Assembly: GCA_003242085.1 (NCBI GenBank)
Contig: QBML01000015.1
Coordinates: 1-64,000 of the forward strand
DNA from: Pseudanabaena frigida
GTDB lineage: Bacteria > Cyanobacteriota > Cyanobacteriia > Pseudanabaenales > Pseudanabaenaceae
Length of the DNA stretch: 64,000 nt
Direction: 5' to 3'
Shown: positions 20,364 through 22,973 of the stretch, piece after piece
Layout of the letters: each line of letters starts with the position of its first letter
How positions within the stretch are numbered: the first letter of the stretch is position 1
The notes under the pieces: generated by a model
Database searches by the model: none
Seen by the model: only the letters and a program-made list of their open reading frames with translations
What the model was told of the DNA's origin: nothing
Position numbers and translations under genes: made by a program

Positions 20364-20861
20364 TTAGGTAGCAGCGATCGCGAATTCGCCACGGCATTTT
20401 GCGCTGCCTTCAGCGATCGCTAATTCATGAAGTGTAAATTCATCGCCGAGCTTATGCACCAGCATCTCCAGTAAAGCCCGAATTTCGGCATCAGTTTTGA
20501 CTTCAGGGATCTCAGTGGCGATCGCTTCTAGAAAAATTGGGGACTTGAGGCAACTTTGCAAATCTTCTGAAGAAAGTTCTACATCCATAGTCACGTGAAT
20601 CGGATCTAGCAGTCGCAATGTCTCACCTTTAAGGATTTGAGAAATATTGAGGTGAATGGCTTCGGCGCATAGATCGATATTGGTAATGGCTAAGCCTTGA
20701 TATTTCGCACCTGAACCAATAACTACAGCCTTGGGAATATCACCGCTTAAAATTTGGCGGCTTTTGCCAGCGATCTCAATTTCGAGGGTTTCGATATGCT
20801 CGACCTGCGATCGCAACCATAGTTTAATGATAGGAATTAATACAGAACTAACAACAGACAT
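20364..20861 (-). CDS. DUF2993 (LmeA-type) phospholipid-binding-like protein
   Basis: 165 residues. The sequence SQVEHIETLEIEIAGKSRQILSGDIPKAVVIGSGAKYQGLAITNIDL is typical of DUF2993, whose mycobacterial member LmeA binds phospholipids at the envelope; the cyanobacterial role is not established. The start ATG 20861 has AAGG about nine bases upstream; the in-frame TTG at 20915 would add a basic tail. It lies 28 nt upstream of the nuclease gene on the same strand, so the two may share a transcript. Confidence 0.85.
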   Translation of the reverse strand: MSVVSSVLIPIIKLWLRSQVEHIETLEIEIAGKSRQILSGDIPKAVVIGSGAKYQGLAITNIDLCAEAIHLNISQILKGETLRLLDPIHVTMDVELSSEDLQSCLKSPIFLEAIATEIPEVKTDAEIRALLEMLVHKLGDEFTLHELAIAEGSAKCRGEFAIAAT

Positions 20862-21034
20862 GAGTTGAACCTTTTTACCTTTTTGGGTAAACCTTTTTGG
20901 GGTGATGGCAGTCAAAACCTATAAGTTGATAACCATCGACATTGCCTCAATAAGTATAGATGTTCACAGCGTTTCAGGAATAGTGACGCGAAGCGCCACC
21001 ATTTCTGAAGTACATTAACGGATGTTGATAGTAG

Positions 21035-21646
21035 ATGTTCAAAACGGTAACTACAGATATCGAAGAACCTCGTCTTATAGATCCCGATCTACATCTCGTG
21101 CAAGCCTGCTTGCAGGGCGATTCTCATGGCTTTAAACAGTTATATCATCGCCATCAAAATAAGGTGCGCTCAACGCTGTATCAGCTATGTGGCTCCGATG
21201 GTTTGGACGATCTAGTACAGGATGTATTTCTACGAGCGTGGAAAGGGTTAGCTAAATTTCGGCAGACTGCCCAATTTTCGACATGGCTTTATCGTATTGC
21301 TTTTAATGTGGCAAGCGATCGCCGTAAGGTTCTAGCCAAAATGCGATCGCGCAATGTTCAAGTTGAAGATGAGCAGCTTGCTAATCTATCTGACGATGCG
21401 ATCGCTCGTGAAGGCTATTCCCAGGAGGGCTTAACCAAAATTCATTACCAAGATCTGATGCAACGTGGTTTAGCCAAGCTGAGTGAGGATCATCGTGCTG
21501 TATTGGTACTACACGATCTGGAAGAAATACCGCAAAAGGATATTGCGGAAATTTTGTCTATACCAGTTGGCACAGTTAAATCGCGGTTATTTCATGCCCG
21601 TAGTGCCATTAAAAAGTTTTTAGAAGCGCAAGGAGTCGAGTTATGA
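21035..21646 (+). CDS. ECF-type RNA polymerase sigma factor (group 3/4, SigG-like)
   Basis: A 203-residue sigma factor with region 2 (about 25-95; YHRHQNKVRSTLYQLCG, DDLVQDVFLRAWKGLAKFR, FSTWLYRIAFN) and region 4 (about 140-195; LAKLSEDHRAVLVLHDLEEIPQKDIAEILSIPVGTVKSRLFHAR). Regions 1 and 3 are absent, as expected. It is the first gene of an operon: the next gene starts at an ATGA overlap and encodes a membrane protein, a usual sigma/anti-sigma pairing. The target promoters are unknown; self-activation upstream of 21035 is likely but no motif was confirmed. Confidence 0.95.
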   Translation: MFKTVTTDIEEPRLIDPDLHLVQACLQGDSHGFKQLYHRHQNKVRSTLYQLCGSDGLDDLVQDVFLRAWKGLAKFRQTAQFSTWLYRIAFNVASDRRKVLAKMRSRNVQVEDEQLANLSDDAIAREGYSQEGLTKIHYQDLMQRGLAKLSEDHRAVLVLHDLEEIPQKDIAEILSIPVGTVKSRLFHARSAIKKFLEAQGVEL

Positions 21647-22107
21647 AAGAACGATATTCTCAAGGATCTCAAGATTTTTCAGAAAACTTTGAGGAAAATT
21701 CTCATGACGACTCTGAGGCTTCTCTCGTAGCATTTCTCAGGCAAAATAAGCCGATCGCCCCTCCTCCTGTGCCAAATTTTGAGCAGCAGCTATTTGCGGA
21801 AATTAGCAAATATCCCCAGCGATCGACACGCAGGAATTTCAAGCGTTGGCTACCTTGGGCTTTGCTGATCCCCATAGCGATCGCTACAGGCATTACCTTT
21901 AATCTGGTAAACAATCGATCGCAGTTGCAAATCGCGAGTAATCCTAGTCTCAATCAAATGAGTGAATCCGAGCAAGCAGCAATCGAACAGTCTTTGATTA
22001 GTAGTTGGAATGTAACTGACGATGTCGTTTTGCAGACAACCAACGCAGCGACCACATCAACAGATACGCAATTGTTAAACGATTTATCTCCCCTTGAATA
22101 TGAATAA
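21643..22107 (+). CDS. Putative membrane anti-sigma factor
   Basis: 154 residues. A charged cytoplasmic N-terminal half (about 1-60) is followed by one membrane helix (WLPWALLIPIAIATGITFNLV, about 67-88) and a periplasmic tail of about 65 residues rich in Ser, Thr and Asn. No HxxxCxxC zinc motif is present. The role is inferred from position: ATGA overlap with the ECF sigma gene and topology. It would hold the sigma at the membrane until an envelope signal arrives. Confidence 0.75.
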   Translation: MKERYSQGSQDFSENFEENSHDDSEASLVAFLRQNKPIAPPPVPNFEQQLFAEISKYPQRSTRRNFKRWLPWALLIPIAIATGITFNLVNNRSQLQIASNPSLNQMSESEQAAIEQSLISSWNVTDDVVLQTTNAATTSTDTQLLNDLSPLEYE

Positions 22108-22166
22108 ATCCCCAAAATCACAAAGGCTCTTTAAAACTTTTAGCCATCGAAAAATACGAGAAATAT

Positions 22167-22778
22167 ATGTTTAAGTCCAAGATCTTTCAATATTGTGCGA
22201 TCGCTGTCGCAGTAGTTGCTACTAGTGGTGCGATTGTGTCTAGTACTGCTAGTTTACAATCTCAATCGTCACCTCAAGCTCAGACAAAAGTTAAGACACA
22301 GGAGCAGTTAGCAAGTCCTGATAAATTTGCCGAGTTACCAGACTCAGCAGATAAACTTAGCGAACTCCCTAATAGTCCTGACATGCCTTCAGGAAAGGTT
22401 CTCAAACAATTAAATCTCACCCCTGAGCAATTACAAAAACTCAAAGCAGTTCGAGATCGTGACCAAACTAGCCTTCGCGATCTGGCTCAGCAATCGCGCC
22501 AAGCCAATAAAGAATTACGAGACTTACTGGCAGGTACTGAAAGCAGCGATGTGATTCGGACTAAACATACTCAAGTACTGAATCTCCAGCAAGAATTACA
22601 AAAGCAACATTTTGAGAGAATGTTGGCGATGCGCGAAATTTTAACTCCTCAACAGCGATCGCAGCTAAATGAAATGATGCAAAAAAATCGTTCTCGGATG
22701 CGGGATGGCTTAAAAGATCGTATTCAAAATCGTATGGAAAAGCGCATTGAAAATTTTCGCGATCGTTCATCCTTATAA
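22167..22778 (+). CDS. Spy/CpxP-like periplasmic LTxxQ protein
   Basis: 203 residues with a signal peptide (FQYCAIAVAVVATSGAIVSSTASLQS) and a helical hairpin with two LTxxQ-like motifs, LNLTPEQLQKLKAV and ILTPQQRSQLNEM, on either side of a charged helix. In proteobacteria such proteins (Spy, CpxP, ZraP, CnrX) are periplasmic chaperones or metal sensors that set the activity of an envelope stress pathway. Here it is third in a sigma/anti-sigma operon 59 nt downstream, so it may be the sensor or a regulated chaperone. The very basic Arg-rich C-terminus is unusual. Confidence 0.82.
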   Translation: MFKSKIFQYCAIAVAVVATSGAIVSSTASLQSQSSPQAQTKVKTQEQLASPDKFAELPDSADKLSELPNSPDMPSGKVLKQLNLTPEQLQKLKAVRDRDQTSLRDLAQQSRQANKELRDLLAGTESSDVIRTKHTQVLNLQQELQKQHFERMLAMREILTPQQRSQLNEMMQKNRSRMRDGLKDRIQNRMEKRIENFRDRSSL

Positions 22779-22786
22779 ATCTGAGG

Positions 22787-22835
22787 CACTGACACTAAAA
22801 AAGCATCGTAAAACGATGCTTTTTTAGTGTCAGTG
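22787..22835. terminator. Terminator of the sigma operon (23-bp perfect hairpin)
   Basis: Arms CACTGACACTAAAAAAGC plus ATCGT, loop AAA, perfect complement over 23 bp. It starts eight bases after the Spy-like gene stop and has a T-run in the right arm. It may also insulate ctaA. Confidence 0.85.
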
Positions 22836-22973
22836 TAAATACCTAACGCGAAGAAATTGTTAAATCCGATTATCAAATATAGAACTACTCTTAATATGAA
22901 CACTTAGTACTGCTCATACTTATGTTGAGTTTTATCAAGATTAGTAAAGAAAGCCTGAACCTATTGAACTTGA

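What the first reader, a model, noticed from the sequence alone, without database searches (positions are those of the whole stretch)
21035..22778. ECF sigma, membrane anti-sigma and Spy/CpxP-like protein in one operon
The trio recalls CnrH-CnrY-CnrX metal sensing, where the periplasmic LTxxQ-like sensor controls the anti-sigma. Here the anti-sigma lacks the zinc motif. The signal could be metal or envelope damage. I am not aware that this exact trio is characterised in cyanobacteria.
Basis: inference. Interest (0 to 1): 0.5.

Follow-up and report, generated by a model that had tools for sequence, protein, structure and literature searches.

The report
Cyanobacterial SigH envelope-stress operon with Spy
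This is a probably self-activating stress-response operon, found in many branches of cyanobacteria, in which a transcription switch, its likely membrane-bound lock and a periplasmic chaperone-like protein are made together; it looks built to sense damage to the cell envelope rather than metals.

Summary
The trio is real: ECF sigma 21035-21646, one-helix membrane protein 21643-22107 (start overlaps the sigma stop by 4 nt), predicted secreted LTXXQ (Spy/CpxP-like) protein 22167-22778, ending at a strong terminator-like hairpin. It is not a curiosity of this genome: in 94 of 101 loci read, from 29 families, sigma and membrane gene are followed by a Spy-like gene. The sigma is of SigH type (Tlr0317/Sll0856), not SigG; a 2009 review says nothing was known of SigH targets. 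Its likely promoter, TTGAACCTT-N15-GTCTAA, is found in looser form ahead of 94 of 101 operons; the strict form occurs in 45 of 137 genomes with this sigma and 0 of 154 without. The same sites precede unlinked Spy-like genes, HlyD-type membrane-fusion genes, a PDZ/S41 protease, small secreted proteins and a group-2 sigma: a predicted envelope-care regulon. No His or Cys column is conserved in the Spy-like protein, so a CnrX-type metal sensor is unlikely. That the membrane protein is the anti-sigma rests on position and architecture; that the Spy-like protein controls it is inferred, and 7 of 101 loci lack the neighbouring Spy-like gene.

The parts
20886..20918 (+). predicted SigH-type (ECF) promoter: GGTAAACCTT - 13 nt - CAGTCAAAAC; -35 core has TAAACC where most relatives have TGAACC
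   Evidence: position-weight match 26.8, position confirmed; same element ahead of 94 of 101 homologous operons
21035..21646 (+). ECF sigma factor, SigH type (203 aa)
   Evidence: NF009171 268.7 bits over cut-off 208; Sigma70_r2, r4_2; 53-87% identical to five relatives of its own family and 49-61% to eighteen from other families; nearest solved structures E. coli RpoE 1or7 (1.7e-34), CnrH 4cxf 2.9e-15
21643..22107 (+). putative membrane anti-sigma factor (154 aa), start overlaps the sigma stop by 4 nt; residues 22-34 and 46-54 short helices, about 70-98 membrane helix, 108-135 periplasmic helix with invariant E115 and near-invariant W122
   Evidence: position, N-in by flanking charge in 94 of 100 homologues, AF2 model pLDDT 70.7, pTM 0.26, conserved columns in 34 sequences; no family hit except NF052375 at E 0.0048, far under cut-off
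22167..22778 (+). predicted secreted LTXXQ (Spy/CpxP-like) protein, 203 aa; hydrophobic N-terminus, low-confidence linker, helical domain 76-202 with LTxxQ motifs around 84-88 and 159-164
   Evidence: PF07813 42.4 bits; profile of 34 homologues finds Spy 3oeo at E 3.6e-10; AF2 model with pLDDT 90 or more for 115 residues; Foldseek prob 1.00 to ZraP and CnrX, 0.99 to CpxP, but E 0.04-0.1
22786..22836 (+). hairpin (24-bp stem, A/T tracts), likely bidirectional terminator closing the operon
   Evidence: MFE -38.2 kcal/mol, z -12.3, 0 of 200 shuffles; exact inverted repeat of 22 bp; the simple terminator scan did not list it

Best explanation
The trio is a widespread, self-amplifying envelope-stress switch of cyanobacteria. 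The SigH-type sigma is held at the membrane by the N-terminal cytoplasmic helices of the one-helix anti-sigma. When periplasmic or outer-envelope proteins are damaged, the anti-sigma is inactivated, most likely by regulated intramembrane proteolysis through a site-2 protease, and the sigma is released. It then transcribes its own operon from the TGAACC-N17-GTC promoter, plus unlinked Spy-like chaperones, small secreted proteins, membrane-fusion proteins of export pumps, a PDZ/S41 protease and in some lineages a group-2 sigma. The Spy-like protein of the operon is both a product (periplasmic chaperone) and, by inference, a brake: it docks on the conserved periplasmic helix of the anti-sigma until unfolded clients draw it away, as CpxP is held to do for CpxA. 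Shown by sequence: operon, conservation, promoter element, predicted targets. Inferred: that the membrane protein is the anti-sigma, its proteolysis, the signal, and the brake role.
For: Operon order in 94 of 101 loci, 29 of 29 families read. Of the 80 loci of the named-genome scan, the first 19 (L139-L157; 18 titled as cyanobacteria, one Nitrospinota; seven have the contig length of loci already counted) all have sigma, anti-sigma profile hit and promoter (score over 13), and 18 of 19 the Spy-like gene (L146, Gloeomargaritales, lacks it). Promoter ahead of 94 of 101 operons, spacer exactly 13 in 90 of 94; shuffles 8 of 303. Strict motif: 56 sites in 45 genomes, all 45 among the 137 with this sigma, 0 of 154 without; reversed control 3 sites. 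Of the 56 sites 18 are the operon, 17 unlinked LTXXQ genes, 7 HlyD-type fusion proteins, 5 group-2 sigma, 2 PDZ/S41 protease (one a partial or broken frame), 4 small secreted, 3 other (46 neighbourhoods read, one of most kinds checked in Pfam; 10 assigned by coordinate). Genus: 81 sites, control 43; 19 operon, 19 unlinked Spy-like in 18 of 24 genomes, 8 small secreted. The window's own genome has such a site 45 nt ahead of its second Spy-like gene. No conserved His/Cys. Over 58 non-redundant loci the anti-sigma's periplasmic part and Spy co-vary beyond the sigma (partial r 0.25, 0 of 500 shuffles; cytoplasmic part 0.11, 18 of 500). [quoted passage not shown] PsigH-73 of Synechocystis contains an RpoE-like promoter (PMC2758279, passages).
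Against: Seven of 101 loci keep sigma, anti-sigma and promoter without a Spy-like gene next door, so Spy is not required in cis. 61 of 154 genomes without this sigma also have an LTXXQ match. A Synechocystis sigH mutant tolerated all growth and stress conditions and sigH rises late after heat shock (PMC3264485, passages). No sequence or PDB relative shows the membrane protein is an anti-sigma. The co-variation is weak, and the two halves of the anti-sigma itself do not co-vary (0.003), so the method is noisy. Seven of 101 upstream regions gave no good promoter (L071, L078, L109, L117, L122, L129, L138), and the matrix was trained on the same regions. The element is not unique to this sigma beyond cyanobacteria: 12 of 61 other ECF loci of the scan, none with the full trio, score over 9 too. 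In this genus the looser motif is only about twice the control (81 to 43), and the window's own operon promoter (TAAACC) does not match it. No expression data.
Confidence: 0.6

Rival explanations
1. The Spy-like protein is only an output: the sigma/anti-sigma pair senses by itself (for example through proteolysis of the anti-sigma), and the Spy-like gene is simply the first and most constant target, carried in the operon.
For: Unlinked Spy-like genes are predicted targets of the same promoter; 7 of 101 loci lack the cis copy but keep sigma, anti-sigma and promoter; Spy of E. coli is an output of its stress systems (recalled).
Against: Constant place in the operon in 29 families; weak co-variation with the anti-sigma's periplasmic part; conserved periplasmic helix of the anti-sigma suggests a partner.
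Confidence: 0.3
2. It is a metal sensor of the CnrYXH kind: a metal bound by the Spy-like protein releases the anti-sigma.
For: Same layout and a similar predicted helical fold as CnrX and NccX; Pfam 'Metal_resist' scores 34 bits, cut-off 29.2; fusion proteins with the CusB/HlyD domain among targets.
Against: No conserved His or Cys column among 94 proteins; CnrX is not among the 19 PDB sequences matched by the profile at E up to 1; the sigma is nearer to E. coli RpoE than to CnrH; predicted targets are mostly chaperones and secreted proteins; sigH falls to 0.30 in 3 uM copper in Synechocystis, as sigG does.
Confidence: 0.06
3. The 154 aa protein is not the anti-sigma; the sigma is controlled only by transcription, and the membrane protein has another envelope role.
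For: No family, sequence or PDB match; low model confidence.
Against: Possible start overlapping the sigma stop by 4 nt in 97 of 101 loci, membrane helix with N-in charge, conserved N-terminal segment; the parallel gene product SapG binds SigG in yeast two-hybrid (PMC2758279, passage).
Confidence: 0.04

Closest known systems
Cyanobacterial SigH (Sll0856, Tlr0317) ECF sigma
   Same: Same sigma type: in G030, whose single contig has the size I recall for Thermosynechococcus BP-1 (2,593,857 bp), the trio sigma lies at 303.7 kb (fits Tlr0317) and the SigG-like one at 2,195.6 kb (fits Tlr2109) (table in PMC2758279)
   Different: Passages seen give transcript starts, late heat induction and a mutant without phenotype; no third partner and no target set
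SigG-SapG of cyanobacteria (Synechococcus 7002, Nostoc punctiforme)
   Same: ECF sigma plus downstream partner gene product that binds it; link to cell envelope in Nostoc (study recalled, not held)
   Different: A different sigma: the SigG-type gene of this genome is L005 (27% identical); the protein encoded after it is unlike the trio's and looks RseA-like to me (by eye); no strict site was found in any of 154 genomes without the trio sigma, and the two of them that I checked (G143, G024) have the SigG type
CnrH-CnrY-CnrX / NccHYX of Cupriavidus
   Same: ECF sigma, zinc-free one-helix membrane partner with two short N-terminal helices predicted, periplasmic helical protein
   Different: No conserved His/Cys ligand positions; predicted targets point to envelope care; sigma nearer to RpoE than to CnrH; anti-sigma not alignable by sequence
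CpxP/Spy (E. coli Cpx and Bae responses)
   Same: LTXXQ periplasmic helical protein made on envelope stress; CpxP is a feedback brake (recalled)
   Different: Here tied to an ECF sigma/anti-sigma, not to a two-component system
Azospirillum RpoE8 - hypothetical - periplasmic heavy metal sensor operon
   Same: Same three-gene layout reported in passing (PMC12826043, passages)
   Different: Proteobacterial; not the subject of that paper; relation not tested here

Membership tests
SigH-type cyanobacterial ECF sigma (NF009171) | NF009171 score over curated cut-off | tested here: met
   268.7 bits, cut-off 208; that this family equals SigH type is my inference from G030
SigH-type cyanobacterial ECF sigma (NF009171) | orthologue is SigH (Tlr0317), not SigG (Tlr2109) | tested here: met
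SigH-type cyanobacterial ECF sigma (NF009171) | RpoE-like promoter ahead of its own gene | tested here: met
   94 of 101; PsigH-73 in Synechocystis
LTXXQ / Spy-CpxP family (PF07813) | two LTxxQ motifs, N-terminal export signal, helical domain | tested here: met
   hydrophobic N-region in 91 of 94; export itself not tested
CnrYXH metal-sensing system | metal ligands (His/Met/Glu) in the periplasmic sensor | tested here: not met
   best His column 44 of 94, 23 of 94 with no His in the last 130 residues; the commonest Met column in the helical domain, Met152, is kept in 61 of 94; ligand set of CnrX recalled
CnrYXH metal-sensing system | zinc-free anti-sigma with two short cytoplasmic helices then one membrane helix (class II) | tested here: inconclusive
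   helices 22-34 and 46-54 before the membrane helix (low confidence) agree with the description of CnrY in PMC7406223 (passages), but no detectable sequence relation
CnrYXH metal-sensing system | metal-efflux operon as target | tested here: inconclusive
   HlyD-type fusion proteins at 7 of 56 sites, no metal-efflux operon identified; genes beyond the first were not read
Zinc anti-sigma (ASDI/ZAS) | HxxxCxxC | tested here: not met
   0 of 101

The most novel reading that the evidence does not exclude
The operon is an ancient envelope-proteostasis response of cyanobacteria, found from Gloeobacterales to a genome titled Nostoc and since lost in many lines, in which a Spy/CpxP-like chaperone without conserved metal ligands is the sensor: it sits on the periplasmic helix of a class II-like anti-sigma and is titrated off by misfolded proteins, exposing the anti-sigma to site-2 proteolysis. 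This would be an ECF counterpart of the Cpx-CpxP switch, feeding in some lineages into a group-2 sigma cascade.
Probability: 0.35. Interest if true: 0.7.

Novelty: new variant of a known kind. Interest (0 to 1): 0.52.

Why it matters
[quoted passage not shown] The work here gives a testable promoter, a target list and a near-constant third partner, and so makes a cyanobacterial envelope-stress response open to direct experiment. It also shows a CnrX-like layout used without conserved His/Cys metal ligands.

Tried and rejected
SigG-SapG was my first reading (after); rejected when most genomes proved to hold a second ECF at about 1e-30 (251 of 291 have some match at 1e-20, 137 over the cut-off) and when positions in G030 fitted Tlr0317 for the trio and Tlr2109 for the other. 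Metal sensing: tested by residue conservation and targets, not supported. An internal promoter ahead of the Spy-like gene: 5 of 94 above threshold, top 10.9. Recurrent genus sites antisense to or inside coding frames (clusters of 5, 4, 2, 2) were read as conserved coding sequence. Profile search of the anti-sigma against the PDB gave only ribosomal protein S19 at E 0.58 and worse. A regular-expression test of the periplasmic helix gave 77 of 101, too crude to compare loci with and without Spy. VIA-align Z values near 10 for CnrX and ZraP sit among unrelated long helices, so they add little; Foldseek E-values never fell below 0.04. The sigma-70 promoter scan found no more sites than shuffles. 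One sequence per locus was chosen automatically: for L097 the anti-sigma frame was wrong (a 93 aa frame starts at -4), L118 and L119 are frames read too far upstream, and my script set a few more starts to -4 without checking; one search then found a possible start at -4 in 97 of 101. Of 137 genomes with the sigma I read 101 loci. The sigma search scored at most 10 candidates a genome, so some of the 154 'without' may be misses. Recalled only: the Nostoc SigG study, CnrX ligands, CpxP mechanism, BP-1 genome size, Spy as an output in E. coli. The trio was looked for in print; the listings (top 6 to 25 of up to 127 papers; none) did not show it for cyanobacteria; most subscription papers are not held. 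The promoter may already be predicted in Todor et al. 2020, which PMC8155712 cites for an 'extended' SigH motif; I could not read it.

Full report
What is there. The window carries, at the coordinates given, an ECF sigma gene, a gene for a small membrane protein whose start overlaps the sigma stop by four bases, and a gene for a predicted secreted LTXXQ protein. A hairpin with a 24-bp stem at 22786-22836 follows, before the ctaA and ctaB genes. A promoter-like element at 20886-20918 precedes the unit.

Distribution. NF009171, the family of the sigma, is over its cut-off in 137 of 291 sampled genomes of the class. I fetched 100 of these loci and added the window. A Spy-like frame was found in 94 of the 101, after the membrane gene in the same orientation. 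A possible start codon overlaps the sigma stop by four bases in 97 of 101; the membrane protein matches the window's in 70, and the other 31 match a profile of those 70. All 29 families read have at least one full trio. The seven misses are two genomes of one genus in the window's own family (L066, L069) and five of six loci of family f17. A scan of titled genomes returned 80 loci; the first nineteen (L139-L157) include Pseudanabaena, Tychonema, Myxacorys, Crocosphaera, Chroococcus, Xenococcus PCC 7305, Limnothrix, a genome titled Nostoc, Gloeobacterales and one titled Nitrospinota; eighteen have the trio and all nineteen the promoter; seven of them have the contig length of a locus already counted. 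None of the other 61 loci, from other phyla and with more distant sigmas, has all three. Independent evidence: PF07813 matches (E up to 0.001) in 134 of the 137 genomes with the sigma and in 61 of the 154 without.

Which sigma. Most genomes also hold a second ECF at about 1e-30 to the same family. In the window's genome it is L005, followed by a gene whose product looks RseA-like to me. In G030, whose contig length equals the size I recall for BP-1, L005's relative lies at 2,195,640 and the trio sigma at 303,651, which fits Tlr2109 = SigG and Tlr0317 = SigH in the table of PMC2758279. So the trio's sigma is SigH type. The same review states that no information was available on genes controlled by SigH-type factors; passages seen, not the whole paper. 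By profile the sigma is nearer to E. coli RpoE than to CnrH.

Promoter. Counting spaced words upstream of the operons gave TGAAC-N18-GTCT in 57 of 101 against at most 5 for any word in one set of shuffles. A weight matrix trained on them finds a site above 9 in 94 of 101, with the same spacer in 90; 8 of 303 shuffled regions pass, the best at 19.1. The matrix was trained on these same regions, so the number is not independent; the next test is. The strict form TTGAACCTT-N15-GTCTAA was searched in 291 genomes: 56 sites in 45 genomes, reversed control 3 sites. All 45 are among the 137 with the sigma, none among the 154 without. Genomes are related, so the P-value of 2e-17 overstates the case, but the split is clean and ties the element, within cyanobacteria, to this sigma; the two genomes without it that I tested have the SigG-type sigma (G143, G024). 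Outside, 12 of the 61 more distant ECF loci score above 9 as well, as expected for a general GAAC/GTC type of ECF promoter.

Targets. Of the 56 strict sites, 46 neighbourhoods were read and ten assigned by position. 18 lie at the operon, 17 ahead of unlinked LTXXQ genes, 7 ahead of HlyD-type membrane-fusion proteins, 5 ahead of a group-2 sigma, 2 at a PDZ/S41 protease (one a partial or broken frame), 4 at small secreted proteins, 3 elsewhere. Nine of these proteins were scanned against Pfam (two of the small secreted ones without a hit), the rest follow by clustering. Within the genus the looser form gives 81 sites against 43 in the control: 19 at the operon, 19 ahead of an unlinked Spy-like gene in 18 of 24 genomes, 8 ahead of small secreted proteins, and 35 others, of which a few may be real (L256, an interrupted target; L271 and L283, fusion proteins) and most look like chance or coding sequence. 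In the window's own genome the second Spy-like gene has a site 45 nt ahead of its start; the operon's own site there is weaker (TAAACC).

The third protein. Its profile finds E. coli Spy in the PDB at 3.6e-10, a VirG-like protein at 2.7e-9 and ZraP at 0.015. The model has four helices and resembles ZraP, CpxP and CnrX, but with Foldseek E-values of 0.04-0.1. Over 94 sequences the most conserved positions are the two LTxxQ motifs and Arg156/Arg164; no His or Cys column reaches half. A CnrX-like metal site is therefore unlikely.

The second protein. It has a membrane-helix-like stretch in 100 of 100 homologues scored (L097 left out), N-terminus inside by charge in 94, a conserved N-terminal segment (LxxFL...P in 97 of 101), and a periplasmic helix with invariant Glu115 and near-invariant Trp122 in 34 sequences. 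[quoted passage not shown] No homology was detected. The name anti-sigma rests on position and architecture.

Mechanism. I judge the operon and the self-activation about 0.9 likely, the envelope signal 0.75, proteolytic release 0.6 (helped by the remark on Slr0643 in PMC4284730, introduction only), and the brake role of the Spy-like protein 0.45. Support for the last is the near-constant position and a weak co-variation; against it stand the seven loci without it and the fact that Spy-like genes are targets too. Against the whole: the Synechocystis sigH mutant had no phenotype.

Novelty. The layout is known from CnrYXH and is mentioned in passing for Azospirillum. What is new here, as far as the ten paper searches show, is that it is a conserved, probably ancient cyanobacterial operon of SigH type, with a defined promoter and an envelope-directed predicted target set.

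Noticed in passing
own genome G000:C4:114724-115247 (locus L002 1144-1668): second, unlinked LTXXQ gene with a SigH-type promoter 45 nt ahead of its likely start
   Followed up: yes
own genome G000:C39:7433-7461 (locus L256): a small secreted target gene with a perfect promoter is interrupted after about a dozen codons by an insert that seems to have inverted ends, like a small transposable element
   Followed up: partly
own genome G000:C9 41208-41735 and 64701-65228 (L007, L008): two copies of another ECF sigma that score identically, 23 kb apart on one contig: a recent duplication or an assembly effect
   Followed up: no
window 20364-20915, minus strand: divergent LmeA-like (PF11209) lipid-binding gene; its longest frame reaches into the operon's promoter
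   Followed up: no
L155: a contig titled Nitrospinota carries the whole trio (39% identity) with a strong promoter match: horizontal transfer or a misassigned contig
   Followed up: partly
L176: a Pelotomaculum contig has the same promoter element (score 27.3) ahead of an ECF sigma without the trio
   Followed up: no
L296, L297, L300, L305, L334: strict SigH-type promoter ahead of a group-2 sigma factor gene in five genomes: a possible sigma cascade
   Followed up: partly
L200, L218: ECF sigma with an LTXXQ-like gene close by in an alphaproteobacterial and a Bacteroidales contig
   Followed up: no
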